Source of the DNA: a virus | Virus record (IMG/VR): IMGVR_UViG_3300042924_000717 | Span: 1-20,149 of that record | DNA: 20,149 nucleotides | Strand: one strand, 5' to 3' | Shown here: piece by piece, positions 302 through 20,149 of the stretch | Layout of the letters: the number at the start of each line of letters is the position of its first letter | Position numbering within the stretch: position 1 is the first letter of the stretch | Notes under the pieces: model-generated | What the model saw: only the letters and a program-made list of their open reading frames with translations | Database searches by the model: none | Told to the model about the DNA's origin: nothing | Made by a program: the position numbers and the translations under genes

Positions 302-1261
302 ATGGCAGGCAAATTAACAGATGACAAACAAATGAGCGCCAGCCGGTTGCCCGGCTTGCTCGGGTTCAGCCGGTACAGCACCCCGAATGATGAGCTGCAA
401 TACAGCATCAATGCCATCGATGGCAAGGAGCGGCCAGACATTGGCAATGAGGCCATGGGCTGGGGCAATACGCTTGAGCCGGTGATCTTGCAGCAAGCAG
501 CCATGCGGCTGGGCATCACCGACTACGACACCCAGATTGGCCAGGCCTACACGCACAGCAGCATTCCGCTGTCGTGCAGCCTGGATGGCGTTGGCCACGG
601 CACCGGGCAGGAGATCTTTCCAGACCCAGACAAAGGGATCTTTGTGGTTGGCCAAGACTCAATCGTGCTTGACGGGCCCGGCGTGCTGGAGGCAAAGCTG
701 ACCAAGACCATGCCCGAGGAAGTGCCGCACCTGGCGCGTGGCCCGATTCAGTTACAAGGCCAGATGCTGGTGACGGGGCACAAGTGGGGCGCTGTTGCCG
801 TGCTGTATCAGGGCATCGAGCTGCGCGTGTTCCTGTTCGCACCGCACTACGACACCCAGAAAGAGATCGTCAAGGCGGTGCTGGCCTTTGAGCAAAAGCT
901 AAAAACCTACCAAAAAACTGGAGCCATAGATTGGTACCCGCCAGAGAGCAGCAAAGAGCTCGACCGGATCTACCCCATGGCCGCTGACAGGGAAGAGATC
1001 CAACTGCCTCCCAGCGTAGGCGACCTGGCCAAGGGCATCATTGAGAACAAGGCCGCGATCCGCGCAGCCGAGGCCAGCATTGATGAGGCTGAGAAACTGA
1101 TCAAGCAGGAGCTTGGCCAAGCCGAGCGTGGCCGGGCTGGCCAGTACATCATCAACTGGCCAATGCGCAATTACAAGGATGCGCCCGAGCGGCTGGTGCC
1201 AGCCAAGAAGGCGTACAGCGTGCGCCAATCAACCCTGTCAATCAAGGAATGGCAGACATGA
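302..1261 (+). CDS. YqaJ-like phage exonuclease (lambda Red-alpha type 5'-3' exonuclease)
   Basis: The 319-residue product fits the YqaJ/lambda exonuclease branch of the PD-(D/E)xK nucleases. These enzymes degrade the 5' strand of double-stranded DNA ends to leave 3' single strands for an annealing partner. Visible signatures in order are 'GNEAMGWGNTLEP' near residues 48-60 (conserved acidic residue E59), 'SCSLDG' with the metal-ligand aspartate D95, the E-x-K pair in 'GVLEAKLTK' (E130, K132), and 'IQLQGQMLVTGHKWGAVAVL' (149-168), the typical Q-rich strand and helix after the active site. The C-terminus (about 240-319) is helical. The ATG at 302 is preceded by AGGAG at 291-295. Its TGA overlaps the next ATG as ATGA. 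The RecT-family gene downstream completes a Red-like pair, supporting a role in recombination, end repair or concatemer processing rather than restriction. Confidence 0.9.
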   Translation: MAGKLTDDKQMSASRLPGLLGFSRYSTPNDELQYSINAIDGKERPDIGNEAMGWGNTLEPVILQQAAMRLGITDYDTQIGQAYTHSSIPLSCSLDGVGHGTGQEIFPDPDKGIFVVGQDSIVLDGPGVLEAKLTKTMPEEVPHLARGPIQLQGQMLVTGHKWGAVAVLYQGIELRVFLFAPHYDTQKEIVKAVLAFEQKLKTYQKTGAIDWYPPESSKELDRIYPMAADREEIQLPPSVGDLAKGIIENKAAIRAAEASIDEAEKLIKQELGQAERGRAGQYIINWPMRNYKDAPERLVPAKKAYSVRQSTLSIKEWQT

Positions 1262-1437
1262 ACCTACCCGACAAGCCAGCCATCTGGCATGCCTATGAGA
1301 AGGCTGTTGTGGCCATGCTTGATGCAACCGACTGCACTGAAGATGAGGCCGAGGCCTTTGTCGATGCCATGACAAACCTAATTTTTACCACCATGAAAAC
1401 CTACTTGAAAGAAACAAATGCAACTGACAACCACTAA
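1258..1437 (+). CDS. Hypothetical 59-residue acidic protein between exonuclease and RecT
   Basis: This gene is not recognised. It encodes 59 residues, helical and acidic in the middle ('TEDEAEAFVDAM'), with no membrane segment or catalytic motif. I place the start at the ATG at 1258 and not at the in-frame ATG at 1249. The AAGGA at about 1244-1248 is correctly spaced only for 1258, and that choice gives a four-base ATGA overlap with the exonuclease stop. The 3' end overlaps the RecT gene by 20 nt. Being locked between an exonuclease and its annealing partner, it is almost certainly translated with them. It may modulate the pair, but that is inference from position alone. Confidence 0.72.
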   Translation: MNLPDKPAIWHAYEKAVVAMLDATDCTEDEAEAFVDAMTNLIFTTMKTYLKETNATDNH

Positions 1438-2491
1438 CAGGGGCTTTGCCCCCACCACCCTCACCGAGGCCATGACCTTCTCAGACATGCTGGCCAACTC
1501 CAGCATGGTGCCCCGTGCCTACCAGGGCAAGCCTCAAGACATCCTGGTCTGTGTCCAGTGGGGCATGGAGATGGGGCTGGCACCCATGCAAGCACTCCAG
1601 AATATCGCTGTCATCAATGGCAAGCCCTCGGTCTATGGTGACGCACTCATGGCGCTGGTGCAGGCCAGCCCTGTCTGTGAGGATATTGAGGAGTTCTTTG
1701 AGGGTGAGGGCACGCCCAACCCGGTGGCCGTCTGCGTGGCCAAGCGCAAGGGTCGCACGCCAGTGACCGCCAAGTTCTCAGTGGAGGATGCCAAGCGTGC
1801 TGGCCTGTGGGCCAAGCAGGGGCCATGGACGGCATACCCAAAACGCATGATGCAAATGCGAGCTCGCGGCTTTGCGCTCAGGGATGCCTTTCCTGATGTG
1901 CTCAAGGGCATGATCACCGCCGAGGAGGCGCAGGACTATCAGGAAGAAACCAAACCCCGACAGGTGGCTAAACCGGCTAATCCGCTGGACATGATCGCGC
2001 CAACACCCATGATTGAGCAGACCAGCAACCCGGCGGTGATCGAGTCAGTGTTTGCCCACGATCAGGAGGCCGACACGGTCAATGAGCTGGTCGCCCAGGC
2101 CAAGGCTGACAGTGGTGAATCAGACTTTGTGCTCAAGGCACTCAGCGAGGCCAGCGCTTTTGCAGACAAAATGGTTGAGCGCTTTGAAGTGTTGAACATC
2201 CCCGAGGTGACCGAGCAGGCACCCACAGGCGAGCTGTTTGCTGTCCTGCTGCCCGGCAAGGACAAGCCGCACTCAATGCACGGCACGCTGGAAGAGTGGC
2301 AGGATGCCTATGAGGCGGTTGCTGAGAAGACTGCCATGGCCACCAAGGTGCCAGCGCGGGAGCGTATGACCAAGCTGCGTGAGCTGCGTGAGCTCAATGA
2401 GCCCACCATCGGCAAGGTTGAGATGATCGCTCGCATCAGGCATACCGCTGCCTACAGCAAGCGGCTGGGTGCGCTGGGTGCAGCTCAGTAA
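1418..2491 (+). CDS. recT: RecT-family single-strand annealing protein
   Basis: The 357-residue product has the RecT-family core in its first 165 residues: 'SSMVPRAYQGKPQDILVCVQ' (28-47), 'GLAPMQALQNIAVINGKPSV' (53-72), and 'WTAYPKRMMQMRARGFALR' followed by 'DAFPDVLKG' (137-164), the most conserved stretch. These proteins coat and anneal complementary single strands made by the partner exonuclease, here the YqaJ-like gene just upstream. Residues from about 175 onward are a long, charged, poorly conserved extension ending in a basic helix, longer than many RecT proteins. The ATG at 1418 lies inside the preceding gene with only a weak GAAAG-type binding site, so translation is probably coupled. 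Downstream lies a hairpin and then convergent genes, so this is the last gene of the plus-strand operon. Confidence 0.88.
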   Translation: MQLTTTNRGFAPTTLTEAMTFSDMLANSSMVPRAYQGKPQDILVCVQWGMEMGLAPMQALQNIAVINGKPSVYGDALMALVQASPVCEDIEEFFEGEGTPNPVAVCVAKRKGRTPVTAKFSVEDAKRAGLWAKQGPWTAYPKRMMQMRARGFALRDAFPDVLKGMITAEEAQDYQEETKPRQVAKPANPLDMIAPTPMIEQTSNPAVIESVFAHDQEADTVNELVAQAKADSGESDFVLKALSEASAFADKMVERFEVLNIPEVTEQAPTGELFAVLLPGKDKPHSMHGTLEEWQDAYEAVAEKTAMATKVPARERMTKLRELRELNEPTIGKVEMIARIRHTAAYSKRLGALGAAQ

Positions 2492-5102: not shown

Positions 5103-7475
5103 TTAAGCTGTGTAAGTTCCAGATGATGTGTAAGTCAGAATTGTGTTTGCGCCGCTTGTTGTGACAGTCGGTGAGCCTGTGGTTGTGCCAGAGTATTTGG
5201 TTGTTGGAATAGACAAGATGACTACGCCCGAACCGCCTGCGGCAGCCGTTACATTTGCACTAAGACCACCGCCGCCACCACCACGATTGGCAGTTCCAGC
5301 CGTTGCATTAGAAATATTAGCGTAAGCACCATTACCTCCACCTCCAGCGCCGCCTGAAGCCACTCTCTCATTATTTCCACCACCACCACCGCCAGCGTAA
5401 GTTACAGATGAACCCGTAATTGATGATGCAGTTCCATCACCACCCTCACCTTGTGCATCTGTATTTCCTGCTTCTCCTGCACCGCCGCCACCGCCAGCCG
5501 CAAATTCAGGGGATGTATTTAATCCCGAACCACCATTATTACCTTGTGATGGAGATGTGCTAGGCGTGTTTCCTATGCCAACAGTTGTCGAATCAAATCC
5601 AGCGCCGCCACCAGAACCACCGCTTTTCCCATTATTACTTGGCGAGGCAGCGCCACCATTTCCACCGCCGCCGCCAGCAGTTGATGTAATTGTGGAGAAC
5701 ACAGAATCATTTCCGTTATTTCCTCCCGCACTTCCACCCGCGCCAACAGTGATGGTGTATGAAGTACCTGAAGTTAGAGCAAATCCTGTGCCTGTTCTAA
5801 AACCACCCGCACCACCACCGCCAGCATTATTATTGCCGCCACCACCGCCGCCGCCTGCAACTACCAAATATTCAATAAAAACAAGAGGGACTAAAGACCC
5901 GCTGGTCGTAAATGTATGGATAGTGTTGCCACCAGAAGTAGTGACTGTGCCGCCGCTAAACACTTGTGATCCAGCGTAAGAGATGATGACTACGCCAGAG
6001 CCGCCTGTTCCACTTGAGCCACTCGTACCGCCGCCGCCGCCACCGCCGCCAAGGTTTGCAGTTCCTGCTGTGCCACTTCCCGCGCCATTGCCAGCGCCGC
6101 CACCACCTGTACCGCCTGTTGATGTGCCAGAATTGCGACCTGAACCGCCGCCGCCGCCTGCGTAAGTGACGCTAGAACCTGAAATTGAGGACGCTGTACC
6201 GTTGCCGCCGTTGCCTGCCGTGCTTCCGCTTGCATTCCCGCCCACTGCACCCGCTCCACCGCCTCCACCACCGGGGTAATTACTGCCATCGCTATTTCCA
6301 GCGCCGCCGTTGTTACCTTGACCAGATATACCAGTTCCACCCGCACCGCCGTAAAAACCGCCGCCGCCAGAACCACCATTTTTGTCTACAGTGCCGCCGT
6401 GTTCGCCGCCCCCTCCTCCAGTTGAGGTGATTGCATTAAAAACAGAGGCCGAACCTTTACCGCCTGAGTTTGGATATGTGCTTGAAGTACCACCGCCACC
6501 GACTGTAATTGTGTAAATAGAATTTGCGTCAATCTTCAGTCCAGAGCCAGCAAGTAAACCACCCGCGCCGCCGCCACCGCCACCAGAACCACCGCCACCA
6601 CCACCAGCCACTACCAAGTAACTTGCAGTTACAGATGACAAAGGGCTAAGTGCGCCAGAAGATGTGAATGTGTGAATGAAGTTACCGCCTGATTGGGTAA
6701 CAGTTCCACCACCGAATAATTGTGTTGCGCTTGTGTAGGAGATGATGACGATACCTGAACCACCATTACCAGCAGTAACAGTGCCTGTAGAGCCGCCGCC
6801 ACCAGAGCCTGTGCTTGCTGTTGCGCTGGTCGGGTTAACCGCAGGAGTAAATTTAGCCCCGCTACCGCCAATACTAGAGCCACCAGCACCAACCGCGCCG
6901 TCATATGATGAGCCGCCACCGCCGCCAGCATAAGTAACAGATGCGCCTGAAATGCTTGATGCAGTTCCTGCTCCCCCCGTGCCGCCGCCAGCGCCTGTTC
7001 CCGTTCCAGTGCTTCCGCCTACTGCACCCGCACCGCCACCGCCACCGCCAGCCCAGTTGCCTGATGTTGAACCTGTGCCGCCGTTGTTGCCTTGGCCTGA
7101 AGTTGCTGTGCCTATTGCACCTGATGTTCCACCGCCGCCACCGCCTGAACCACCAGAACCTGCGGCAATAGAGTCATATCCACCTTTTCCGCCACCTACT
7201 GCGGATGTGGCATACCCACTGAATGTTGAGTTTGCGCCATTGGTGTTATTAGAGCCGCCTGCACCAACAGTAACCGTGTAAGACAAAGTTGGGTTTAAAG
7301 ACACCGTGCCTGTTAAAAGACCACCTGCGCCACCACCGCCACCGCCGTTTGTGCTACTTCCACCACCTCCGCCACCGCCACCCGCTACGATTAGGTAACT
7401 AGCAGTAACCGATTGCAATCCTGTCCACCCAAAGGCGGCAAGCGCAGCAGCTCCAATTTTTGATAGACGGGGCAT
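5103..7475 (-). CDS. Giant glycine-rich tail adhesin with three homologous polyglycine modules
   Basis: The 790-residue product is dominated by runs of glycine. Three homologous modules follow a short N-terminal hydrophobic segment ('SKIGAAALAAFGWTGLQS'): about 22-280, 281-532 and 533-790. Each opens with 'YLVVAGGGGGG', contains 'YT[IV]TVG.GG', 'GQGNNGG', 'GTASSI[ST]G[AS]SVTYAGG' and 'GGSG[IV]VI[IL]S', and ends in a strand-rich 'GGTVT.SGGN.IHTFT.SG'. Polyglycine stretches of this kind form packed polyglycine-II helices in phage adhesins such as T-even gp38-type tips, and the family is annotated as glycine-rich tail or receptor-binding protein. It directly follows the tail fibre gene, so a role at the fibre tip in host recognition is likely. 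The ATG at 7475 has AAGGA 8 nt upstream. No autocleavage or chaperone domain is apparent. Confidence 0.85.
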   Translation of the reverse strand: MPRLSKIGAAALAAFGWTGLQSVTASYLIVAGGGGGGGGSSTNGGGGGGAGGLLTGTVSLNPTLSYTVTVGAGGSNNTNGANSTFSGYATSAVGGGKGGYDSIAAGSGGSGGGGGGTSGAIGTATSGQGNNGGTGSTSGNWAGGGGGGAGAVGGSTGTGTGAGGGTGGAGTASSISGASVTYAGGGGGSSYDGAVGAGGSSIGGSGAKFTPAVNPTSATASTGSGGGGSTGTVTAGNGGSGIVIISYTSATQLFGGGTVTQSGGNFIHTFTSSGALSPLSSVTASYLVVAGGGGGGSGGGGGGAGGLLAGSGLKIDANSIYTITVGGGGTSSTYPNSGGKGSASVFNAITSTGGGGGEHGGTVDKNGGSGGGGFYGGAGGTGISGQGNNGGAGNSDGSNYPGGGGGGAGAVGGNASGSTAGNGGNGTASSISGSSVTYAGGGGGSGRNSGTSTGGTGGGGAGNGAGSGTAGTANLGGGGGGGGTSGSSGTGGSGVVIISYAGSQVFSGGTVTTSGGNTIHTFTTSGSLVPLVFIEYLVVAGGGGGGGNNNAGGGGAGGFRTGTGFALTSGTSYTITVGAGGSAGGNNGNDSVFSTITSTAGGGGGNGGAASPSNNGKSGGSGGGAGFDSTTVGIGNTPSTSPSQGNNGGSGLNTSPEFAAGGGGGAGEAGNTDAQGEGGDGTASSITGSSVTYAGGGGGGNNERVASGGAGGGGNGAYANISNATAGTANRGGGGGGLSANVTAAAGGSGVVILSIPTTKYSGTTTGSPTVTTSGANTILTYTSSGTYTA
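5106..7412 (-). repeat. Three diverged tandem modules of about 760 bp inside the adhesin gene
   Basis: On the minus strand the copies run approximately 7412-6636, 6635-5880 and 5879-5106. They align at the protein level from 'YLVVAGG' to the 'HTFTSSG' ending and differ in the loop lengths between glycine runs. Dense GGN codons make the plus strand extremely C-rich here. The pattern is best explained by internal duplication followed by divergence or recombination. Confidence 0.85.
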
Positions 7476-7485
7476 CTGCGTGTCC

Positions 7486-9195
7486 TTATGCGAACTTGGT
7501 TACAGAGGCCAACACAGTAAACGCAGCACTGCCTGTTTTGATAATTACATAGGTGTAGCTGTCAATTGAGCTTGCATTGCCGCTTGTCGGGGCAGAACCA
7601 CCCTGCCATTTTGGCGTGACAGTGGAGCCATCAACTTGGACAACAGAGTTGTAGTAGGCCGTAGCGCCGTTGGTCACCAGGAATGTGGCAGACAAAGACT
7701 CGCCCGTGGACATGATGGTGTTCAGTGATGTACCGCTTGAACCCCTGAAGTTCACAGTGAAGTTGCCACTGGCATTGGTGGTGTAGTACAGAACCGATTG
7801 GGTTGTGACATCAAAGTTAATTGTGCCTGTGGCCGCAGTTGCAGAGACAGTTGCAACCTCAAGAATGTTGGAGGTCTTCAAGTCTGCATTTGACGCAGTG
7901 CCTGCAAAGGTCTGGAGCGCTGTGAATGTCTGCGCCACATCGGTCTTGGCCGTGTCTGCGTCAAACGCTTGGACATCCGTGCCAATAGCCAACCCCAAGA
8001 ATGTACGGGCTGATGCGCCACCGGCACCCAAGGTAGTCAGGTCGGCATCGTAGGCCTGGACATTGGTGCCGATCACAAGGCCAAGGTTTGTCCTGACAGT
8101 TGCAGCAGACGCTGTCAGCTCAGACAGATTGTTTGCAGTGAGCAGATACGCAGCACCAGACACATAAGCGGCCACCCAAGCAGAGCCTGTGTACAAGCGC
8201 ATCTCTGGCACTGTCGTGTTGTAGTACAAGGAGCCAGCAAGCAAAGCGTTGCCGTCATTGTCTAGCGTTGGATCGCTTGCTTTGGGGCCAAGGTAGCGAT
8301 CATCAAAGTTGTCATACGCAGCCAAGGCTGAGTCGCGTGCCGCTTCAGCAGCGCTCTGTGCTGTGGCTGCATTGCTGGCGCTTGTACTCGCGGCAGAGGC
8401 AGAGCTGGACGCATTGCTTGCGCTGGTGCTTGCATTGCTGGCCGAGGTGGATGCGTTGCTGGCTGATGTGCTGGCTGCTGAGGCAGAGGCTGCTGCGTTG
8501 GTGGCCGAGGTTGTTGCTGATGCGGCATCAACCAGCAGAGTCCATTTTGCAGAGTCAGCGTTGGTGGTAATCGGCAAAGCCCCGCTTGAGGTATGCGCCG
8601 TGATGACTTGGAAAATGTTGTTGGTGGTGGTGTCCTTTGCAATGTCTCGCACATAGTAGACAGTGCTAGCAGCCCAGTTGCCACGGTTGGTGCCCAAGGT
8701 TTCGCCCAGTGCAGGGTTGCCATTGGCATCAAAGCCCAGCGTCTTGTTGGCTCGCAGTGATGCAAGCGGCAAGGTCATGTTGATGTTGGTCGGGTCTGTC
8801 TGTGGAGCTGACAGCGCCCTGACCAAGCCCTCAGCATTTTGCTGGGCAAAGATAGTCTGCTGATCCAGCTCATCATTAAGCGTGTTGGCAAAGAAGTCGC
8901 CGCCGGTTGTGAAGTCGGTTGCCCTGGCAATAGTGCGGTTGCCGACAATGGCGTACTGGGTTGGCGAGGTTGGTGCCAGCGCCAAGCCGGTGGCTGTGAT
9001 GGTCACCGAGCCGGTACCGTTGGCGTTGATGACCACTGTGTAGTGGGTGGTCAGCGTCAGCAGGACATCGTCCTTGAACACGGCAATGTCGGTGTTGGCC
9101 AGGATCTCAAAAGTGAACGCATACGGCCCCTCGCCACCAGTGCCACTGGGTGCGTAGACTGCTCGGCGGGTTACATTGCTGATTGGGATGGCCAT
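7486..9195 (-). CDS. Tail fibre protein with T7-type N-terminal attachment domain
   Basis: The product has 569 residues. Residues 1-150 match the T7 tail fibre N-terminal domain: 'MAIPISNVTRRAVYAPSG', 'PYAFTFEIL...DIAVFKDD', 'VVGNRTIARATDF'-like 'IVGNRTIARATDFTTGG', then 'LNDELDQQTIFAQQNAEGL'. This domain fixes the fibre to the tail. Residues 168-222 ('GNWAASTVYYVRDIAK', 'VITAHTSSG') look like a small carbohydrate-binding-type module. Residues 224-290 are a Ser/Ala/Asn heptad coiled coil. 'ASDPTLDNDGNALLAGSLYY' and 'MRLYTGSAWVAA' (306-344) form a motif common in environmental phage fibres. Two 'LGL.IGT.VQA[YF]DAD' repeats follow, then a strand-rich C-terminus of about 130 residues. It has a good AAGGA site and precedes the adhesin by 10 nt. 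The fibre probably presents that adhesin, though this is not proven. Confidence 0.92.
   Translation of the reverse strand: MAIPISNVTRRAVYAPSGTGGEGPYAFTFEILANTDIAVFKDDVLLTLTTHYTVVINANGTGSVTITATGLALAPTSPTQYAIVGNRTIARATDFTTGGDFFANTLNDELDQQTIFAQQNAEGLVRALSAPQTDPTNINMTLPLASLRANKTLGFDANGNPALGETLGTNRGNWAASTVYYVRDIAKDTTTNNIFQVITAHTSSGALPITTNADSAKWTLLVDAASATTSATNAAASASAASTSASNASTSASNASTSASNASSSASAASTSASNAATAQSAAEAARDSALAAYDNFDDRYLGPKASDPTLDNDGNALLAGSLYYNTTVPEMRLYTGSAWVAAYVSGAAYLLTANNLSELTASAATVRTNLGLVIGTNVQAYDADLTTLGAGGASARTFLGLAIGTDVQAFDADTAKTDVAQTFTALQTFAGTASNADLKTSNILEVATVSATAATGTINFDVTTQSVLYYTTNASGNFTVNFRGSSGTSLNTIMSTGESLSATFLVTNGATAYYNSVVQVDGSTVTPKWQGGSAPTSGNASSIDSYTYVIIKTGSAAFTVLASVTKFA
7948..8103 (-). 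repeat. Two-copy 'LGL.IGT' repeat in the tail fibre
   Basis: Fibre residues about 365-416 contain 'TNLGLVIGTNVQAYDADL' followed by 'TFLGLAIGTDVQAFDADT', about 30 residues apart and still similar at the DNA level. This kind of short repeat is frequent in trimeric phage fibre shafts. Confidence 0.75.
8368..8472 (-). repeat. 21-bp coding repeats (heptad STSASNA) in the tail fibre
   Basis: Five tandem copies of a seven-residue unit ('STSASNA' and variants) span about fibre residues 242-276. The spacing suits a trimeric coiled-coil shaft. Copy number may vary by replication slippage. Confidence 0.8.
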
Positions 9196-9228: not shown

Positions 9229-12114
9229 TTACTTGGGTTTGTAATAGAGGCCGTTGGCTTTTTTAAGCTCTTCAAGCTCATCAATTTTTGGCTGTAGGCT
9301 GGGCTCTTCTATTTTGAGCTGGTCTTTGGCTGCGTTCATGTATTTGGAATGTACTCTCTGCACCGTCTTTTGCTGATCATCCAGCGACAGCAAGTCAAAG
9401 CCTGGGGTCTGCATGATGTTCAAGATCTCAGCCTTGCTTGGCAGCTCCTTGCCGTAAATGGTCAGCAGCCGGTTGTACTGCACAGCATCTATCTCAACAC
9501 CTTCGATCTTGCGGTCGGGCATGCCAATGGGTGAGCCCATCCGCACCAGCAAGTCATCCACCTCCGAGAACTGCTGGGATGTGACCCTAGTTGGCAGCAC
9601 CAACTCATAGACTGCACCCGTGCCTGACTTGGTCGCATCGCCCCACAGGTTCAGCACTTCTGGCAAGTCTGCATTGAAGTACGGGATGCGCGACTTGTAC
9701 TTGTTAAACGCCTCAACAAAGCCGCGCATGCCCATGGACAGCTCGGGGCTGGCGCGGGTGTCCCGGTTGGTCGGGTCAGACAGCCGCTCAAAACCAGCAA
9801 GCATTGAGCTATAAGCACCAGCGGGTGAGCCGCCAATAACAAAACTACCGGCCTGTTTAATTATTTGTTCAATGCCTTTTTTAATTTTTTCATCTTCGTC
9901 TGCACCTGTTTTGCCCATACCAAGCACTTTGGCAATTTCTGCAAGACCCTGCAAATAAGGTTGCTCTGCCAAGTATTCGTAAAGGCCAAAAGCTCCACCT
10001 AAAAATACCTCGGCAATTTTGTTGTCATCAGACTCTCGTTGAGCGTATTCACTGTAGTCTGCGGCAATTGCCAAAAAGCCAGACATAGGATCCATGCCGT
10101 TGTAGCTGTAATATTTGCCGCCAATTTTGAGGGAGTACGGCTGCCACCCGTCACGGATCAGCGCGTCACGGTCTTCTTTCCGTACAGGGCCACTTCCAGT
10201 AATCATCCCTTCAGCGGCCAGTGACCCAAAGGTCGCCAGAGTTGCTGTGCCAAGCGTTACCTTGGCCAGAGCCATGTCGCGGTACACGCCACCCTTGGCG
10301 ATCTCTTCACGCCACTGGCTGGACAGTGGGGCAAACGGGGTGCGCTCAACAAGTTGCAAACCAATGTTGGCTGGTGTTTTAAAGAAAGGTTGAACCACTT
10401 TCATAATTGGATTGTTGAAGACTTTTTGCAGCCCCTTCAAGACCGGTGGCAATTCAGCGGTAAAGGTTCCTTTTTGAGCAAAAAGGGAGGCAGCTTCATC
10501 TAGGTCGCGTGGTGGGTTTTGATACAGGCTGATGGCTTCGGCCTCCATCTTTGCCAGAGCATCAGCTTCGGGAACGCCAGCTTCTATCGATTCGCGGTAG
10601 ACCGTCTTGCTGCGCCGAATGATCAGAGTGTTGAGCTCCATCCGATACAGCGTACCTTTAAAAAATTCATCCTCTGCCATGAGAGCTCTGCCTGGCAGCG
10701 TAACTGCTGTGCCATAGTAGTCAATGGCCTTGGCAAACCATTTGTCCTGCTCAATACCAAAGCCAGCAGAACTGATTGCTGGGACAGTATTGCCGCGCTG
10801 GGCCTCAACCTTGCTCATCAAGTCGCTGGGCTGATTTTTCTTAAAGGCAGTGCTTGCCAATTCCAAACCTTCAAGGACTCCATTGCGCAGCGACTGCATC
10901 ATGGTCAGCGCTTCATCGTAAGCAATTTTGTCTTGCGCGGATCCTGGAAGTAAATCTCCCCATTTGGTAACAAGGTTGGGCATCCGTCCTTCGCGCACAG
11001 CCTTCGGCAAGAAGTTCGAATACATTGAGGCCACCAAACGCTCGGGCATTTGATACAAGCCCATCGTACTGTTGCCGACAATGTTCTTGGCATGCGACAC
11101 GCCGCTAGACAGCAGCCCATTGATGTAGGTGGTGAACCACACATCTTTCACGCTCGACATCATCGACTTCTCAACCAGAGCATTCTGAGCGGCACGCGAC
11201 TCCAGCGTCAGGTAGGACTTGGCCAAGTCAGACAGGGCAGCGTCACCACCGTACTCATCAATCACCTGGCGCACGATAGCAGCATTGCCATCGCGGGGGA
11301 TGCGGAACACAGCCAGCGACCGAGCTGTCTCGGTCTGGATGCCCTTGACACCGCGCTGGATCAGGCCGTGGAAGGCGATCTGCTGGCGCAGCTTGAGCTT
11401 GTCCACATCGGTGGCCGTGCCGCTGTTGACCATTTTGAACAACTTGTCGAGTTCGTTGGCGCTGGACTCCAGCACCTCCAGCGCTTTGTAGGTCTCGACA
11501 GCGTTGGCCATCATCTTGCCGTCAGTGCCGATCAGGCGCGACAGGAAGGCCTCGCCAATGCCCGACTCAGCAGCCTTGTCCTTGATCTCTTGGAAGGTGA
11601 CCGCCTTGGTGCGGATATTCAGCGCATCGGCCACGCCGCCCACAATGGCAGCGGCATCCTCGGTCTGGTAGCGGGACAGGTTGAACGGCTCATCAGGCGT
11701 GCCGCCGGGTTTACCCTCGGTGATGCCAAAGGTCTGCCTGCGGGTGACAGCTCGCTCAACGGCCTCTGTCAACGGCTGGTCAGCCTCGGGGATCAGCTTA
11801 AAGCGGCTAGCCTTGGCAGCATCAGGCAGCTCGCCGGGCAAAGCACGCGCAGCCTCGGGCACCAGGTTGCGCTCGGCCTTGGTGGCTTGCCGGGTGATCA
11901 GCTTGCGCAGAGCAGCGTCCATCGGGCCTGCGACTTGGACACCCTCCTCCATGGACGGGGTGCCGATCTCAGCAACCTCGGGCATCTGAGTTGTGTCGGC
12001 TTGAACGGCCCCAGGCATGGGCTCTAAAGGGATGTCCTCGGCAGGCGTGCTGGGCGCAGCACTCGGCAGGATCTGGCCAAGGCGCTGCTCAAGGGGTTTC
12101 TGCTCAATGGCCAT
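9229..12114 (-). CDS. Very large putative internal virion (ejection) protein, polyvalent-protein-like
   Basis: The 961-residue product sits in the position of T7 gp16. The N-terminus (1-70) is Pro/Glu-rich and probably disordered. Residues 325-350 carry 'WFTTYINGLLSSGVSHAKNI', 475-495 'GRALMAEDEFFKGTLYRMEL', 578-590 'FFKTPANIGLQLV', then a hydrophobic stretch (614-642) and 'DGWQPYSLKIGGKYYSYNGM' (655-674) with 'AIAADY'. I associate these motifs with large polyvalent or ejected proteins of tailed phages, especially 'LLS...H..N...N', 'DEFFK' and 'GW.PYS.K......YSYN'. No lytic transglycosylase signature is visible. The C-terminus ends in a Lys/Glu helix. The ATG at 12114 forms TGATG with the upstream gene and has AGGAG 7 nt before it. 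Function as a genome-ejection protein is inferred from position and motifs. Confidence 0.75.
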   Translation of the reverse strand: MAIEQKPLEQRLGQILPSAAPSTPAEDIPLEPMPGAVQADTTQMPEVAEIGTPSMEEGVQVAGPMDAALRKLITRQATKAERNLVPEAARALPGELPDAAKASRFKLIPEADQPLTEAVERAVTRRQTFGITEGKPGGTPDEPFNLSRYQTEDAAAIVGGVADALNIRTKAVTFQEIKDKAAESGIGEAFLSRLIGTDGKMMANAVETYKALEVLESSANELDKLFKMVNSGTATDVDKLKLRQQIAFHGLIQRGVKGIQTETARSLAVFRIPRDGNAAIVRQVIDEYGGDAALSDLAKSYLTLESRAAQNALVEKSMMSSVKDVWFTTYINGLLSSGVSHAKNIVGNSTMGLYQMPERLVASMYSNFLPKAVREGRMPNLVTKWGDLLPGSAQDKIAYDEALTMMQSLRNGVLEGLELASTAFKKNQPSDLMSKVEAQRGNTVPAISSAGFGIEQDKWFAKAIDYYGTAVTLPGRALMAEDEFFKGTLYRMELNTLIIRRSKTVYRESIEAGVPEADALAKMEAEAISLYQNPPRDLDEAASLFAQKGTFTAELPPVLKGLQKVFNNPIMKVVQPFFKTPANIGLQLVERTPFAPLSSQWREEIAKGGVYRDMALAKVTLGTATLATFGSLAAEGMITGSGPVRKEDRDALIRDGWQPYSLKIGGKYYSYNGMDPMSGFLAIAADYSEYAQRESDDNKIAEVFLGGAFGLYEYLAEQPYLQGLAEIAKVLGMGKTGADEDEKIKKGIEQIIKQAGSFVIGGSPAGAYSSMLAGFERLSDPTNRDTRASPELSMGMRGFVEAFNKYKSRIPYFNADLPEVLNLWGDATKSGTGAVYELVLPTRVTSQQFSEVDDLLVRMGSPIGMPDRKIEGVEIDAVQYNRLLTIYGKELPSKAEILNIMQTPGFDLLSLDDQQKTVQRVHSKYMNAAKDQLKIEEPSLQPKIDELEELKKANGLYYKPK

Positions 12115-14369
12115 CACTTAGCTCCTTTGGCAGAAATCGCACTGCCTTGATTTACGCCTGGCTGCTGTCCTGCTTGGGTAGGTCTTCCGGTTCGCTGGGG
12201 TCTATTGGCAGCACCACCTTGGACAGCTCGCGGAACAGCGCCAGCGGATCCTGAGTCTGGGATGTTGGTGCCGATTGCGGCGGCGAAATCATCAATGAGT
12301 TCACGATTTACTCCTGGCCATGTGTACCACGCTTTGCCAAAATATTCGTTTGGCGTACCGTCTGGTAATGTGTCTTTGCTGAAGAATTTTACACCAGGAA
12401 AGTCATCAGGTATTACCCCATTTTTCTTTTCCATGACATGCTTGAACATTTCATCCAAATCATTTTTGGTCATGGCCACTTTGTCGCCGCCTGCCGTCTC
12501 GTAGACAAACCTGTTGCCGCCTTCTGGCGTGCGCTCATAGGTGATGCCAAAGCCACGCTCATGCGTGCGGCCCTCTTTAACCGGAACATTGGCAAAAGGC
12601 AAATTGGCACCTTCTGCCTTTTTGACAATTGTTTCAAGGGTTGGGTGAGCAACCTCTTGGCCAGACGATAACACCCAGCTCTCCCAGTGGTAGCGCCCAA
12701 TGCTGGCCTTGTCAGCTCGGCCAACCTCCTTGTATAGATCCTGTACGCGCAAAGCCAAAGATCGCTCTAGCGCCTCGTATGTGGCAAGGCCTGGGCCTCC
12801 ATCAAACAGATGAGCCACATTGTCATAAATCTTGTCGCCGCCAGCAAACAGGCGGTTGATCTGAATACGATCTAACACCATGACATCTTCACGGCCAGAC
12901 ACCAACAAGGCAAAGGACAGCACCTTATTCTTGATGCCAACACCTTCGGCCAAGCTATAGAAATCGCGTCTGATCTGTGGCCCTGTCATCTGTGGATCGG
13001 CAACCATATCGTGCAGTGCCTGTAACTTGGTGCGGCCATCAGGCAATTTCTCGCTCATCTTGGGCAAGAATGTTCGCAAGAAATCATTGGCGTTGCTGGT
13101 CACCATATTGCCGGGACTGCCAGCAGGAATCGTTTGACCGATCATTTTTAAACCAGTGTCAATGTCAGCCTGCGTGTACTCGCCGCGCACGGCCTTTTGG
13201 ATAAGCGGCTGCATAGCCTCGGCAAGATCAAGAAAGCCAGACTCATGCGGGTAGGCAGATGCCCTGCGCGAAAGCATGGCCCAGAACATCAGGGTACCGG
13301 TTGTGTCTGCTTTGGCTGTTCCGTTTTGATAGATGTTGCGGAATTTATCTACCACTGCAAAGCCACGATCAGCTTCATCAATCTGGTTTTTGCTCATAGA
13401 GCCAAACCAGCTTGACCATTTTTTCATATCGTTGACATTGCTGATCAACCAGCTTGGCGGGATCGGAACTTCATTGGAGTTGTAGACATTGGCCATCATG
13501 GTGGCAAATGATTCATTTGACTTTAACGGGTCAGGGAATGCTGTCGCCAAATCATCCAACCGTGTAGAAACATCTTGATAGTTGCCGGGGTTGACATCAT
13601 TGACAATGTTTTGGCCTTTGCCATCTGGCGTGTATGAGCCGGTTACCTTGACTCGATATTCTGGCAACAACTGCAAGTTCTTTTCGGCAGTGACTTTTTC
13701 ACTTAATTTTGCTGCGCCATTGTCAACCATGGCAGATGAGTTCATGGTCATTTGACCATAACGCTCAAGCGGCACAGCGCCCATCCGCACTGGCATGCCA
13801 CCTTTCTCCGCTATGTTGAGCATCATTTCAGCAGCCTTGGGGGCAAGCTGCTTTGTTGCTTTTATTGTGCTTAGTGTTCCCGGCACCAGACCAAGTGCAG
13901 CACCGCCGGTTTGCAGCGCAGCCGTCCCATAATCTCCGCGCTTGGCTGAACTCACAGCATCGCCAAGCATTTGTCCAGACTCTTCCATCTGCATTGTTGT
14001 GCCCAAATATGGCGCAAAGTCTGCAAGACCAATATCTAAAGGCAAATTGCTGCTAGGGCCACCAATCAATGTTTGCGCATTCTTGCGAGCTTTGTATTGA
14101 TCCATGCCCAAGTCTACAAATTTAGACTGCAAGAAGTCAGCCAATCGTTGCCTTACAGTTGGCTCGATAGCCTTGATGGTGTCTGGATACCTTCCGGTGT
14201 AGGCCTGCTCGGGCATTCCCCGAGAAATGCCAGCCTCGGCCAGCAGAACATCACCAGGCTGTCTGCCTGGGGCTGTTTGCTCTGGCATGGCCACCTCAAC
14301 CGGCTCATCCGGGAATTGCATGGCGGTCAATGCTGACAGGTACTTGTTCTCAATGGGGCTGTAGGCCAT
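12114..14369 (-). CDS. Large putative internal virion (ejection) protein
   Basis: The 751-residue product lies between the gp15-like gene and the 961-residue gene. A charged, Pro-rich N-terminus (1-60) is followed by helices and a Gly/Ala-rich stretch (136-165). Residues about 465-545 form the most distinctive part: 'IRRDFYSLAEGVGIKNKVLS', 'FALLVSGREDVMVLDRIQIN', 'DGGPGLATYEALERSLALRV'. This resembles helical domains with a 'K..SF......V..LDR' signature found in large phage proteins, faintly like helix-hairpin-helix glycosylase folds, but no catalytic residue can be assigned. Then come 'GRYHWESWVLSSGQEVAHPT' (558-577) and a strand-rich part, ending in a low-complexity Gln/Gly/Pro tail (from about 705). 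The start has GAGGA at suitable spacing. Virion location is inferred from the operon. Confidence 0.72.
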   Translation of the reverse strand: MAYSPIENKYLSALTAMQFPDEPVEVAMPEQTAPGRQPGDVLLAEAGISRGMPEQAYTGRYPDTIKAIEPTVRQRLADFLQSKFVDLGMDQYKARKNAQTLIGGPSSNLPLDIGLADFAPYLGTTMQMEESGQMLGDAVSSAKRGDYGTAALQTGGAALGLVPGTLSTIKATKQLAPKAAEMMLNIAEKGGMPVRMGAVPLERYGQMTMNSSAMVDNGAAKLSEKVTAEKNLQLLPEYRVKVTGSYTPDGKGQNIVNDVNPGNYQDVSTRLDDLATAFPDPLKSNESFATMMANVYNSNEVPIPPSWLISNVNDMKKWSSWFGSMSKNQIDEADRGFAVVDKFRNIYQNGTAKADTTGTLMFWAMLSRRASAYPHESGFLDLAEAMQPLIQKAVRGEYTQADIDTGLKMIGQTIPAGSPGNMVTSNANDFLRTFLPKMSEKLPDGRTKLQALHDMVADPQMTGPQIRRDFYSLAEGVGIKNKVLSFALLVSGREDVMVLDRIQINRLFAGGDKIYDNVAHLFDGGPGLATYEALERSLALRVQDLYKEVGRADKASIGRYHWESWVLSSGQEVAHPTLETIVKKAEGANLPFANVPVKEGRTHERGFGITYERTPEGGNRFVYETAGGDKVAMTKNDLDEMFKHVMEKKNGVIPDDFPGVKFFSKDTLPDGTPNEYFGKAWYTWPGVNRELIDDFAAAIGTNIPDSGSAGAVPRAVQGGAANRPQRTGRPTQAGQQPGVNQGSAISAKGAK
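12122..12126 (-). promoter_or_regulatory. Ribosome binding site deciding the start of the 961-residue gene
   Basis: AGGAG on the minus strand is 7 nt from the ATG at 12112-12114 but only 4 nt from the GTG immediately before it (12115-12117). The ATG is therefore the better start and gives the compact TGATG junction with the upstream stop. Confidence 0.7.
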
Positions 14370-16791: not shown

Positions 16792-19008
16792 TTATGTCCC
16801 TGAGAAAACAGCCACGCGATAGTCGAGGCCGAGCAAATTCATCTTGAGCGGCAGATCTTGGGACAGCTCAATAGACTGCTCGCGGCTGTAGCCAAGCACG
16901 CCATTAACGCGCTTAATTCCGGTGAACTCTGGCACGGGATCATCAAGCAGTGGGTTGTCAAACAAGCGGAAAGCCACCGGCTGGTTGTTGATGATCAGGT
17001 TCTGGGTCTCATTGACCACAGCGCTGATCTCGACAATGCGCTTCTTGAACGACACCCTGCTGCCGGTCTGTAGCTTGACCTCGGCAGGCATGGTCTTGAC
17101 AAACACGCTGATGGGCAGGCCGACCTCAAAGCTGGTGGTGCTTTCCCGATCAAAGGTTACAGCGCCGCCGCCGCTCACAGTTTCATTGCCTTGAGGTGAG
17201 CCATCACAAATTACATTGAGCGACTTGCCAATGTGGGGCAGGCCACTTCCAACACCCCCAGCAGAGGCACCAACAAACGCACAGTCGGTGAAGTACTCGT
17301 AGCCAAACATTTCAATGAAGTACCTGTCAACGCTGTTGAATGTTCGCTTGGTCACCGCATAGATCGTATTAACATCCACGCCCACATCAATGAACCGGCC
17401 ATCGGTGGTGAACTCGCTGGGGCTGGTTACTTGCTGGCTGCGCATGATGCTGAAGGCTGCAATGCTGCCGTCATCGGTGTTGGTCATCAGCAACAGATCA
17501 GCCTCTTCAGTGCTGGATGCCTTGCGCAGGGCGACCCTCTGCGGCCCCTTGAGCAAGTGCCCGGACAGCAGCGAGATGCGCTGGGTGATGTAGGTCAACT
17601 GAGTGTCGTTAAAGATGAACTCGTTGAGCGACTTGCCCTGGCGCTGAATGTAGATTGAGCCAGAGTCCACCGACTGCACCCGGGTGCCAGGCTTGATGCC
17701 ATTGCGACTCACATTCTTGAATGTGAAGGTCAGCGGCGTGACCGGATCAGATCCAGCTTGCGGAATGAAGAACTCGCCGCCCGTGCTGAACACTTGGAAG
17801 TCACGCCCAGAGATGATGTCAGTGATGACATTCAGGTCGTTGGTATCCAGCGTGGCCTCGACCGCATCATCATCCAGCGACTCGCTCGGCACAAAGTCAA
17901 AGAACAGGCCGATCTTTGAGCCCCAGATTGTGGATGGCCGAGACTTGCTGCCGCCAAAGTAGAGCCTGCCTTCGTGGAAAGTTACTGTGCGTGGCCAGCC
18001 CTTGGTGCTCGACCAGACATCTTCATAACCATGTTCAATTTCCCATTTGCCCTGATCAATGGTAGAAGTTGAAAAAAACGGGTATTCAACAACAGCCCTA
18101 ATTTTAGTGTCTGTCAACACTTCAACAATTCGGGCACGCCCTTGAGGCTGCGCATTTATATATTGGTTTACCGCCGCCGCCTTAAAAGATGAAATTTCAT
18201 ATTGGCTGGCGCTGTTTGGTGTTGTCACCCAAGCAGGATGAACTGTCAAAACCTTGGTTGTGCCGTCGTAGTCTTCGCATAAGCGTGTCTGTCCAACACC
18301 AGTTCCAGATGTGATTTCAATAAACATGCCAACATAAATATCATCGACAGAACTTGATGCCGACTTTAAAGTAATAGTACTGGAAGTCGCCGCCTGCGCC
18401 GTGCCGGTAGTATGGTTGGTGTTTGTAGCAGTTAACTCCACATTTCCAGAAACAGCCGTCAACGCCAATGTACTTGTTGTGCGAATGTGTGTATCAAGTT
18501 CAAAAGCATATTTTGGTATTGAATCAAAATTGATAGATGCAACTTGCCATGCTGTATCACTTGTCCTGGTGATTCGCACAGGCTGTAAGTCAGGATGCAC
18601 CACGATCAATGTATCGGCAGACTGAGTCCAGCACATATCGTCAACAATGTCGCTGCCAATTGTGGTGGTCAAGTAGCTGTTGCCGGTGCCATTGATGTTG
18701 GCCTGCACCACGCCATTTTTGATGACATGCATGCGGTTGTGGGTAAAGCACAACATGTAGCTGTCAGTGACTGAGAACTGGAAAGACACCAACCGCACGC
18801 CATTGCCAGCGCTTGGGGTGCTGCTGTTTGGCAGCTCAAACACATGCTTGGTGCCTGGCCTGCGGCGCAGCCCACCTTGGGGCTGGATCAGCACATTGGT
18901 GGCTTTGGCCAAGGCGTTGTTGTACGCAGCCAGGTCTACCCGCGCACGCAGCAGCGGGTCAAGCTCGCCGGTTGCAAAGTTGGTGGTGAACTCGACAAAA
19001 CGGGGCAT
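16792..19008 (-). CDS. Tail tubular protein B (T7 gp12-like nozzle protein)
   Basis: The product has 738 residues (T7 gp12 about 794). The N-terminus 'NFATGELDPLLRARVDLAAY' and 'NVLIQPQGGLRRRPGTKHV' is diagnostic of the family. Other typical stretches are 'WTQSADTLIVVHPDLQPVRI' (127-146), 'GWPRTVTFHEGRLYFGGSKS' (337-356) and 'STGGEFFI' (about 410). This protein forms the distal nozzle of the short tail and gates DNA exit. Residues about 201-272 form an extra beta-domain described separately. The ATG overlaps the stop of the upstream tail tubular A gene by one base (TGATG), so the two subunits are likely translationally coupled. The AT content is higher across about 18030-18550 than in the rest of the gene. 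Confidence 0.93.
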   Translation of the reverse strand: MPRFVEFTTNFATGELDPLLRARVDLAAYNNALAKATNVLIQPQGGLRRRPGTKHVFELPNSSTPSAGNGVRLVSFQFSVTDSYMLCFTHNRMHVIKNGVVQANINGTGNSYLTTTIGSDIVDDMCWTQSADTLIVVHPDLQPVRITRTSDTAWQVASINFDSIPKYAFELDTHIRTTSTLALTAVSGNVELTATNTNHTTGTAQAATSSTITLKSASSSVDDIYVGMFIEITSGTGVGQTRLCEDYDGTTKVLTVHPAWVTTPNSASQYEISSFKAAAVNQYINAQPQGRARIVEVLTDTKIRAVVEYPFFSTSTIDQGKWEIEHGYEDVWSSTKGWPRTVTFHEGRLYFGGSKSRPSTIWGSKIGLFFDFVPSESLDDDAVEATLDTNDLNVITDIISGRDFQVFSTGGEFFIPQAGSDPVTPLTFTFKNVSRNGIKPGTRVQSVDSGSIYIQRQGKSLNEFIFNDTQLTYITQRISLLSGHLLKGPQRVALRKASSTEEADLLLMTNTDDGSIAAFSIMRSQQVTSPSEFTTDGRFIDVGVDVNTIYAVTKRTFNSVDRYFIEMFGYEYFTDCAFVGASAGGVGSGLPHIGKSLNVICDGSPQGNETVSGGGAVTFDRESTTSFEVGLPISVFVKTMPAEVKLQTGSRVSFKKRIVEISAVVNETQNLIINNQPVAFRLFDNPLLDDPVPEFTGIKRVNGVLGYSREQSIELSQDLPLKMNLLGLDYRVAVFSGT
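18193..18408 (-). other. Promiscuous beta-domain embedded in tail tubular B
   Basis: Residues about 201-272 include 'STITLKSASSSVDDIYVGMF', 'IEITSGTGVGQTRLCEDYDG', 'TTKVLTVHPAWVTTPNSASQ' and 'YEI'. I recognise the 'D.Y.G..I.I.SGTG.GQ.R.I..Y.G.TKV.TV..AW...P...S.Y.I' pattern as a short module that recurs in unrelated phage tail and structural proteins. It lies within an AT-richer segment of the gene, which suits exchange or insertion. The boundaries are approximate. Confidence 0.6.
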
Positions 19009-19622
19009 CAGTTCCTCACTGCAATCAGGCTGTAGTCTTCAATGACTCGCACGGGATTGTTCTGGCCATCAATCTGGGCAGCAGTGCGGAAGTAGCCGCC
19101 ACGGCCATTCTCGCTGATGTCGCCTGTGGCCACGCGCTGCCACTTGTTGGCCTTGTCTTGCTGCTCGGTCACGGTCTCGGCAATGTGCCATGCAACCATA
19201 TATTTGAGCAATTGCACAAAGTATTGCGGCATCGCAAACTCTGGCACGCTGTATTGGTAGTCAATGAAGACTTCGGGCTGATTCGTCAGGAGCTTGTCGC
19301 CCTGGATCTCCCAATCCTGCCGTGGGCGAGCGCCTGGCTGCGCGGTCTCATAGACGGCGCGGGGGCTGGCGAGTCGGTCACCCGGCAGTTGATATTCGTA
19401 CAGCCATACGCTGTTTGGGGTGGTGATCAGCTTCGCAAGCTGCACCTTCTTCATGCCAAATGTCCACGGGTACATGACCAGGGTGGAATCACGGATGTCG
19501 GGATACAGGCGGTCGCAAACACTCGACTCGTCTGTGCCGTCATTGAAAGACGATATTGCCTTTGCCCCGATCAGGAGGAGGGCATCAGAGCAGATCGAAA
19601 CACCAGTGTCACCAGCAGCCAT
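19008..19622 (-). CDS. Tail tubular protein A (T7 gp11-like gatekeeper)
   Basis: The product has 204 residues (T7 gp11 about 196). The N-terminus 'ICSDALLLIGAKAISSFNDG' and 'CDRLYPDIRDSTLVMYPWTF' matches the family pattern 'ICN.AL..IGA..I.SF.D......C...Y...R...L...PW'. Later 'LPGDRLASPRAVYE' and 'LLTNQPEVFIDYQYSVPEFA' also fit. It forms the adaptor ring between portal and nozzle. A GAGGGG binding site precedes the ATG at 19622. A hairpin terminator lies 22 nt further upstream, so this is the first gene after it and its expression depends on read-through or an unseen promoter. The stop shares a base with the tail tubular B start. Confidence 0.92.
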   Translation of the reverse strand: MAAGDTGVSICSDALLLIGAKAISSFNDGTDESSVCDRLYPDIRDSTLVMYPWTFGMKKVQLAKLITTPNSVWLYEYQLPGDRLASPRAVYETAQPGARPRQDWEIQGDKLLTNQPEVFIDYQYSVPEFAMPQYFVQLLKYMVAWHIAETVTEQQDKANKWQRVATGDISENGRGGYFRTAAQIDGQNNPVRVIEDYSLIAVRN

Positions 19623-19694: not shown

Positions 19695-19970
19695 TTAGTC
19701 GGTGTCAGTTGCGCTCACGGTAGTTCCGTCAGCAATGTCAACCACACCAGCCGAGGATACAGCATTGACATAAGTCAACACCAAACTTGGCGTAGTAGCG
19801 TCATAGACAAAAATAATGTCACCCACATTTAACAGCGATGCAATGCTGTCAAAGTAGCTCACAGTGTTAACCGTGGCTTGAGTATCTGTTGTCTTATACA
19901 GATACATGTTGGGCGCGTTTCCAGATTTGGAAGCGCAAACGGTCACAAGACCAGTGCTAGAAAAAGCCAT
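19695..19970 (-). CDS. Small capsid-associated protein (possible decoration protein)
   Basis: The 91-residue protein 'MAFSSTGLVTVCASKSGNAP', 'MYLYKTTDTQATVNTVSYFD', 'LLNVGDIIFVYD' and a Val/Ser/Thr-rich end ('VVDIADGTTVSATDTD') belongs to a family of small, beta-rich proteins I recall directly beside major capsid genes in many phages. Its role is usually not established, and decoration or head-fibre-like roles have been proposed. No membrane segment or enzyme motif is seen. A strong AGGAGGG binding site (19978-19984) sits 7 nt before the ATG, consistent with high expression. The gene starts 15 nt after the capsid stop and ends 18 nt before the terminator hairpin, so it shares the capsid transcript. 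Confidence 0.78.
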   Translation of the reverse strand: MAFSSTGLVTVCASKSGNAPNMYLYKTTDTQATVNTVSYFDSIASLLNVGDIIFVYDATTPSLVLTYVNAVSSAGVVDIADGTTVSATDTD

Positions 19971-19985
19971 TTTGCGACCCTCCTA

Positions 19986-20149
19986 TTAAGCCGCAGCCGC
20001 TGTGTCGCGTGCGGTAATTTTCACAATACCTTCACTATCGATGGCAATTGCGCCTGCGCTAAACAGGGCATTGACAAGATAGCTGGTCTTCTCTGGGATG
20101 TAGTTGATCTCGGTCTTTGGAGCGATACCTTCTGCATAGCCAATCGCAT
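19986..20149 (-). CDS. Major capsid protein, C-terminal fragment
   Basis: Only the last 53 codons are inside the window, and the gene continues past the right edge. The translation includes 'AIGYAEGIAPKTEINYIPEK', 'TSYLVNALFSAGAIAIDSEG' and 'IVKITARDTAAAA' before TAA, which is followed at once by an in-frame TAG. The 'INYIPEKTSYLVN....AGA..ID..GIV.I' ending is typical of T7-like/HK97-fold major capsid proteins from environmental podophages. The small capsid-associated gene follows closely. Assignment rests on this short C-terminus and on its position before the tail tubular genes. Confidence 0.8.
   Translation of the reverse strand, partial: AIGYAEGIAPKTEINYIPEKTSYLVNALFSAGAIAIDSEGIVKITARDTAAAA

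What the first reader, a model, noticed from the sequence alone, without database searches (positions are those of the whole stretch)
18030..18550. AT-richer patch in tail tubular B carrying a promiscuous beta-module
Between flanks that are clearly more GC-rich, this stretch uses A/T-ending codons and encodes an extra domain ('YVGMFIEITSGTGVGQTRL', 'KVLTVHPAW') of a kind found in unrelated phage tail proteins. The nozzle protein appears to have gained or swapped a surface module, possibly facing fibres or the cell surface.
Basis: partly seen in the sequence, partly recalled or inferred. Interest (0 to 1): 0.5.

Follow-up and report, generated by a model that had tools for sequence, protein, structure and literature searches.

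The report
Swapped tip cassette in phage nozzle
In this short-tailed phage, the stretch of the DNA-injection nozzle gene that should encode the cell-facing tip has been replaced, as one block, by a divergent version shared with other phages, which hints that the nozzle tip helps choose or engage the host.

Summary
The patch is real and its coordinates are good. In the nozzle (tail tubular B) gene, codons 142-329 (window 18022-18585, minus strand) have low third-position GC (0.35 against about 0.7 around them; 0 of 5000 synonymous shuffles reach this). Against the sister backbone L013 the rest of the gene is mostly 91-100% identical (one second dip, codons ~556-630), the patch 51-65%. Trees of patch and backbone conflict strongly: near-identical patches sit on distant backbones and the reverse. 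This is recombinational exchange of an allelic cassette, not a recent domain gain: the 76-residue domain inside it is in all 80 closest relatives kept, but absent from the MEP301-type nozzles aligned and from contigs such as L217. By predicted fold and alignment to T7 gp12, the cassette covers the nozzle tip, which in T7 points at the outer membrane. Some related nozzles carry other inserts there. The phage's own RecE/RecT-like pair is a plausible engine. A host-surface role of the tip is inferred, not shown.

The parts
16792..19008 (-). nozzle / tail tubular protein B gene, 738 aa (phrog_376)
18022..18585 (-). exchanged cassette, codons 142-329 (188 codons): the predicted nozzle-tip segment with AT-ending codons
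18190..18417 (-). 76-residue beta module (residues ~198-273), all-or-nothing insertion relative to MEP301-type nozzles; homologues in other phage tail proteins
18418..18585 (-). 5' part of cassette, residues 142-197, tip entry
18022..18189 (-). 3' part of cassette, residues 274-329, core tip strands kept in relatives without the insert
18586..18657 (-). 5' conserved anchor, codons 118-141 (72 nt), identical in window, L013 and L014: compatible place for the upstream exchange point
17989..18021 (-). 3' conserved anchor, codons 330-340, identical with L013 (with L014 up to the second base of codon 339): compatible place for the downstream exchange point
17164..17298 (-). second variable segment, codons 571-615, just past the propeller (fibre-dock side by analogy with T7); differs independently of the tip cassette
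19008..19622 (-). adaptor / tail tubular protein A (phrog_394), same order as in MEP301
302..1261 (+). YqaJ / RecE-like recombination exonuclease (PF09588, phrog_434): candidate engine of exchange
1418..2491 (+). RecT-like single-strand annealing protein (PF03837, phrog_561): candidate engine of exchange
7486..9195 (-). tail fibre gene used to ask whether fibre and tip alleles travel together

Best explanation
The patch is an allelic cassette encoding the distal tip of the nozzle, replaced as one block of 188 codons by homologous recombination through conserved flanking coding sequence. Shown: the compositional break, sharp ends, strong conflict between the trees of cassette and backbone, and repeated movement among backbones. 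Shown by prediction and homology only: the cassette covers the tip that leaves the beta-propeller. It carries a 76-residue beta module that is also found in other tail and baseplate proteins. Inferred: the source was a phage with AT-richer codon use; the phage's RecE/RecT-like pair makes the exchange; and the tip is kept variable because it touches variable host surface (a secondary or irreversible receptor contact before the nozzle opens). The confidence given is for exchange plus tip placement; the last inferred step alone I put at about 0.45.
For: GC3 break beyond all shuffles. Window against L013 in 30-codon windows: 92-100% up to codon 150, 51-65% in windows within 151-330, 91-98% within 331-570, a second dip to 72-83% in windows within 556-630, then 92-100%; exact ends at codons 142 and 329. 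In 300-bp bins of 14.1-20.1 kb, the two bins 18001-18600 are the lowest against L011, L012 and L013 (64-67%; all other bins there 74-100%). Cassette type B (9 of 81 rows) needs 1 change on the cassette tree and 6 on the backbone tree; holding the B rows together on the backbone is rejected (dlnL 702, AU p 7e-10). L007/L024: cassette 97% but backbone 77% identical (AU p 2e-5). L021 and L080 are backbone sisters with cassettes in opposite classes (AU p 3e-11). Of 136 distinct pairs with backbone identity >=0.92, the cassette is <0.80 in 16 and each of four control segments in 0. Backbones only 65-76% identical carry the B cassette at 76-88% over residues 198-325 (L183, L184, L185, L187). Tip mapping: model pLDDT 84.6, pTM 0.78; 8ck1 Z 40.4, T7 gp12 chains Z 25.5-27.1, and propeller-only chains align over model residues ~46-572 with ~280 residues, leaving room for an inserted tip; window 335 aligns with T7 337. 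T7's tip leaves a blade-3 loop and protrudes towards the outer membrane (PMC6702177, passages). RecE- and RecT-like genes are present.
Against: No donor genome was identified. The host-contact role is untested. Segment 571-615 of the same gene is at least as variable (27 of the same 136 pairs <0.80), so the tip is not the only exchange site. Type-A cassettes are also slightly AT-rich (mean dGC3 -0.067) and the type-B carrier L060 hardly more so (-0.05), so composition is a weak marker of class. The groups put to the AU tests were named after the trees were seen. Sequence alignment to T7 covers only the 3' side of the tip (probability 67); the 5' side rests on the predicted fold. One chain was predicted, so exposure in the hexamer is by homology. 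In T7 evolved on LPS mutants, none of the listed gp12 changes falls in residues 146-297, where its tip lies (PMC6962156, passages).
Confidence: 0.72

Rival explanations
1. The same exchange is neutral or structural: the tip tolerates sequence change, and the cassette moves only because recombination is frequent in these phages and conserved anchors flank it. No role in host choice. (It differs from the best explanation only in the last, inferred step.)
For: Other parts of the genome are mosaic too: six relatives that align on both sides do not align at 12301-13800, and codons 571-615 vary independently. In SU10, domains inserted in the nozzle propeller act in the channel itself (PMC9509320, passages).
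Against: Four control segments of the same gene never fall below 0.80 in the 136 close pairs. The variable part coincides with the predicted tip. Some related nozzles put other domains at that place. In an Acinetobacter podophage a change in TTPB altered adsorption (PMC10904470, passages), in a domain not established here.
Confidence: 0.3
2. Fast local divergence without exchange (relaxed or diversifying selection, with codon use drifting along).
For: In the bands of close pairs below 0.97 backbone identity the cassette is on average more divergent than the control segments.
Against: L007/L024 cassettes 97% identical on 77% backbones; AU tests; sharp ends at identical anchors and a synonymous composition break.
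Confidence: 0.04
3. Assembly chimera of two phages in a metagenome.
For: The window is a virus record of a contig collection, not an isolate known to me.
Against: The same cassette and cassette ends are in the separate records L003-L006, from four differently numbered IMG/VR datasets, with flanks that differ in L005 and L006.
Confidence: 0.02
4. Recent gain of a new surface domain by this phage.
For: The 76-residue domain is missing from MEP301, from the 11 MEP301-type representatives of alignment A1 and from L217-L219. L217 is 88% identical in backbone to the insert-bearing L183.
Against: All 80 closest relatives kept have it. One origin of the insert is not rejected (AU p 0.317); gain and loss cannot be told apart.
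Confidence: 0.04

Closest known systems
T7 gp12 nozzle (PDB 6r21, 7ey9, 9jyz)
   Same: Platform, seven-bladed propeller and a distal tip that leaves the propeller (PMC6702177, passages); Z 26.8-27.1 for these three.
   Different: About 12% identity; its tip is a beta-barrel with a two-turn 3-10 helix; no exchange of tips is described in the passages read.
Carin 1 phage nozzle 8ck1 and LME-1 phage orf18 9efk
   Same: Closest solved relatives: Z 40.4 and 38.4, sequence matches E 8e-57 and 9e-30.
   Different: Part of the tip finds no match: profile positions 221-330 in 8ck1 and 227-274 in 9efk lie outside all reported stretches.
MEP301-type nozzles (Methylophilales phage MEP301, MW452941)
   Same: Adaptor-nozzle gene order; 54% identity on both sides of the insert.
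   Different: Lacks the 76-residue module.
SU10 nozzle with four Ig-like domains
   Same: Extra domains inserted into the propeller between blades 2 and 3 form the distal nozzle (PMC9509320, passages).
   Different: Other domains; there they straighten into a long nozzle on attachment.
Nozzles of Vibrio phages 1.185.O and PS25B.1 and of contigs L369, L370, L375
   Same: An extra module in the tip segment.
   Different: The module is E1_FCCH-like (above Pfam's cut-off in the two Vibrio phages, below it in the three contigs); the window module shows no match to such segments (hhalign probability 0.2).
Module copies in Microcystis phage Mae-JY22 (phrog_11439 protein) and Klebsiella phage phiKp_32 (beta-helix protein)
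   Same: Homologous ~65-72-residue module, hhalign probability 99.2 and 98.2.
   Different: The proteins that hold it match tail fibre/spike families, not nozzles.

Membership tests
podophage nozzle / tail tubular protein B | sequence profile of the family | tested here: met
   phrog_376 E 2.4e-116 over residues 7-734. Pfam-A gave no family at E<=0.1 for this protein; PF25675 Phage_nozzle passes its cut-off in three of the ten proteins.
podophage nozzle / tail tubular protein B | fold: platform plus beta-propeller with a tip inserted in the propeller | tested here: met
   model pLDDT 84.6; phage tail-complex chains fill ranks 1-27, propeller-only chains follow and align over ~46-572; Foldseek agrees
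podophage nozzle / tail tubular protein B | gene directly after the adaptor (tail tubular A) | tested here: met
   19008-19622 is phrog_394; same order in MEP301
podophage nozzle / tail tubular protein B | hexamer at the tail end that gates DNA | not testable with these tools
   single chain predicted only
recombinational exchange of an allele | cassette and backbone trees conflict | tested here: met
recombinational exchange of an allele | sharp ends next to conserved sequence | tested here: met
   codons 118-141 and 330-338 identical with L013 and L014
recombinational exchange of an allele | donor lineage identified | tested here: inconclusive
   apart from loci L175-L178 (the same contigs as L003-L006), the nearest cassettes in the scan are 80-81% identical over 191 residues (L024, L179-L182)
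E1_FCCH domain | profile match of the module | tested here: not met
   no Pfam family for the 86-residue module at E<=10; for the 142-residue stretch only two unrelated families below their cut-offs; hhalign probability 0.2 against six FCCH-like segments
carbohydrate-binding module 5/12 | profile match of the module | tested here: not met
   not listed for the module; matches in some relatives, one of them (L375) above the cut-off
promiscuous phage tail module (no family name found) | same module in unrelated tail proteins | tested here: met
   25 of 81 module ORFs show no more than 100 residues of nozzle similarity outside the module; of 22 of these scanned, 5 match T4 Gp8, 5 BW3TFN, 1 Baseplate_J, 2 phrog_290, 1 phrog_11439
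diversity-generating retroelement target | reverse transcriptase and template repeat | not tested
   not searched; block exchange at 51-65% nucleotide identity does not look like it

The most novel reading that the evidence does not exclude
The nozzle tip of these podophages is a second, exchangeable receptor-contact site. Natural populations keep a pool of tip alleles and of inserted modules that move by homologous recombination through conserved propeller sequence, independently of the tail fibre and of a second exchange site at the fibre-dock side of the same protein.
Probability: 0.35. Interest if true: 0.7.

Novelty: new variant of a known kind. Interest (0 to 1): 0.48.

Why it matters
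Host range of short-tailed phages is usually credited to fibres and spikes (general knowledge). A tip cassette that moves on its own among otherwise close phages makes the role of the nozzle tip in the last step before DNA release directly testable, with natural allele pairs on near-identical backbones. It also warns that nozzle genes used as phylogenetic markers can hold two exchange sites.

Tried and rejected
Pfam and PHROGs on the module alone gave no usable family. A first structure prediction with 31 rows was poor (pLDDT 56) and was replaced by one with 79 rows. Duplication of the module from the downstream core tip was asked by hhalign: probability 16, not supported. A scan of viral contigs with the vir555 nozzle found no relatives. 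A scan of genome contigs with the module alignment could not start. The published Acinetobacter TTPB change could not be placed: in record OP019135.2 position 21,623 falls in the gene annotated as terminase large subunit, so it is cited as TTPB only, not as tip. Fibre co-inheritance: 19 of 20 records have a fibre match; by score the best after L003's own is in the record of L012 (type-A tip, 80% over 1-521), while the type-B record of L006 has 83% over 1-284 and 60% over 224-349; only 5 of the 20 records are type B, so this is no test. In the listings (titles and abstract starts) I saw no paper on exchange of nozzle tips; this covers the open PMC subset only, and PMC papers cited here were seen as passages.

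Full report
What was checked. The window is itself a whole virus record of 20,149 bases. The gene in question is 16792-19008 on the minus strand, 738 aa, phrog_376 tail protein at E 2.4e-116. It lies directly after the adaptor gene (phrog_394), as in Methylophilales phage MEP301.

Composition. GC falls to 0.43-0.47 between about 18000 and 18700, and 18001-18500 is the lowest 500-bp window of the record (0.448); 200-bp windows within 19700-20049 are nearly as low (0.445-0.47). Codon positions show that the outer part of the dip (residues ~100-141) keeps GC3 at 0.6-0.8. The break in codon use starts at codon ~143 and runs for 187 codons, GC3 0.353; 0 of 5000 free and 0 of 5000 synonymous shuffles are as low. 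Nine other genes of the window were compared: eight have GC3 0.53-0.75, the glycine-rich gene 5103-7475 has 0.36, and 0.25 in its lowest 187 codons. So the patch is extreme for its gene, not for the record.

Relatives. A scan of viral contigs found 570 relatives, of which the best 80 were kept. All 80 hold the 76 residues at 198-273. Identity to the window in five regions (1-130, 131-197, 198-273, 274-340, 341-738) is 98-99/70-71/56-63/65/95-96% for L011-L014, but 83/77/80/91/82% for L021 and 83/79/76/89/82% for L024. So two classes of cassette exist: type B in 9 of 81 rows, type A in 72. Against L013 and L014, codons 118-141 are identical, divergence begins at codon 142 and ends at 329, and codons 330-338 are identical again.

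Exchange. On the cassette tree the classes need one change, on the backbone tree six. AU tests reject the B rows as one backbone clade (p 7e-10), nine rows of the window's backbone clade as one cassette clade (p 1.2e-4), L007+L024 on the backbone (p 2e-5) and L021+L080 on the cassette (p 3e-11). These groups were named after seeing the trees, which the test does not allow for. Among 64 distinct genes, 136 pairs have backbone identity of at least 0.92; the cassette is below 0.80 in 16 of them, codons 571-615 in 27, and each of four control segments in 0. All 6 of the pairs at 0.95 or more with a cassette below 0.80 involve the window's own lineage (window, L003 or L005 against L013 or L014). 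A scan with the cassette itself found 47 loci: L183, L184, L185 and L187 carry type-B sequence at 76-82% (insert) and 84-88% (274-325) on backbones 65-76% identical. Composition by class: dGC3 (cassette minus backbone) is -0.067 +/- 0.053 in 56 distinct type-A genes (lowest -0.19), -0.36 in the window, and from -0.05 (L060) to -0.40 (L006) in the 8 distinct type-B genes.

The 76-residue module. It is missing in MEP301, in all 11 MEP301-type representatives of alignment A1 and in L217, L218 and L219 (L219 is a fragment). On a backbone protein tree of 47 rows the trait needs 3 changes, but one origin is not rejected (AU p 0.317; bootstrap not fully settled), so gain and loss cannot be told apart. 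A consensus query found it in one phage record, a Microcystis phage, and the window's own stretch found it in one, a Klebsiella phage. Hhalign gives probabilities 99.2 and 98.2. Of the 25, 22 were scanned; three with the same ORF length and match figures as a row kept were left out. Tallies, which may overlap: 5 match T4 Gp8, 5 BW3TFN, 1 Baseplate_J, 5 phrog_438, 5 phrog_977, 2 phrog_290, 1 phrog_11439 and 1 phrog_9010; the rest are unassigned. The query alignment was headed by the Microcystis copy, which favours non-nozzle hits, so 25 of 81 is no estimate of abundance.

Where it sits. The 79-row model has pLDDT 84.6 and pTM 0.78, and 68-94 in the ten-residue blocks of the cassette. Foldseek and VIA-align put phage tail chains first: Carin 1 8ck1 Z 40.4, LME-1 9efk 38.4, T7 gp12 chains 25.5-27.1. 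Propeller-only proteins align over model residues ~46-572 with about 280 residues. Hhalign pairs window 335-559 with T7 337-571 (E 5e-5, probability 67). In T7 the tip leaves a loop of blade 3, stabilised by Y146, Y281 and W297 at the propeller base, and protrudes towards the outer membrane (PMC6702177, passages seen). Hence the cassette is the tip; the 5' half of that statement rests on the model. Across 79 nozzles, aligned by MAFFT, the propeller segment 339-545 varies only from 202 to 215 residues, while the tip segment varies from 104 to 253. Extra tip domains of other kinds occur: FCCH-like in two Vibrio phages (above Pfam's cut-off) and in L369, L370 and L375 (just or clearly below it), and ones without a Pfam match in L343 and L365. 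Two other expandable sites exist, before residue 155 and after 545.

Mechanism. The window encodes a RecE-like exonuclease and a RecT-like annealing protein. Recombinases of the Rad52-like superfamily, RecT among those tested, act on diverged sequence with short identical stretches in temperate E. coli phages; [quoted passage not shown] The anchors here are 72 nt upstream and 29-35 nt downstream against L014 and L013, though those shared with the real donor are unknown. That these enzymes did the exchange is inference.

Function. In Acinetobacter phage vB_Ab4_Hep4 a single change in TTPB altered adsorption and host range, and purified TTPB competed for adsorption (PMC10904470, passages); which domain it lies in was not established here. 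T7 evolved on LPS mutants acquired gp12 changes (PMC6962156, passages), but none of the listed positions falls between 146 and 297; this speaks against a dominant role of the T7 tip in LPS choice and is counted so. SU10 shows that nozzle domains inserted in the propeller can act in the channel itself (PMC9509320, passages), a structural alternative to receptor contact.

Verdict. A real and well-placed observation; the swap is firmly supported, the gain is not, and the host-surface role is a reasonable but untested inference.

Noticed in passing
17164-17298: Second variable segment of the nozzle gene, codons 571-615 (window v L013 75%, L005 v L013 96% although window and L005 share the tip cassette): an independent exchange site on the fibre-dock side.
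   Followed up: partly
12301-13800: Within the gene 12114-14369 this stretch does not align by DNA with six relatives (L006, L010, L011, L012, L017, L038) that align on both sides of it: another mosaic stretch.
   Followed up: no
5103-7475: Glycine-rich (PF21722) 790-aa gene with GC3 0.36, as AT-leaning as the tip cassette.
   Followed up: no
19700-20049: Another low-GC stretch (0.445-0.47 in 200-bp windows) around the small phrog_18004 gene.
   Followed up: no
302-2491: YqaJ/RecE-like and RecT-like genes close together in a phage contig with T7-like tail genes.
   Followed up: partly
L217, L218, L219: Nozzles of the window's wider clade that lack the 76-residue module; L217 is 88% identical in backbone to L183, which has it.
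   Followed up: yes
L452: Two neighbouring ORFs each carry a copy of the module (residues 397-474 and 182-262 of the stop-to-stop frames).
   Followed up: no
L181: Type-B cassette with GC3 0.26 and 0.23 in residues 198-273 and 274-325 on a backbone of GC3 about 0.5: the cassette is AT-rich there too.
   Followed up: no
L363, L370, L371: Nozzle homologues with large extra segments at two other places, before residue 155 and after 545 in window numbering; the one in L371 after 545 is FCCH-like above Pfam's cut-off.
   Followed up: partly
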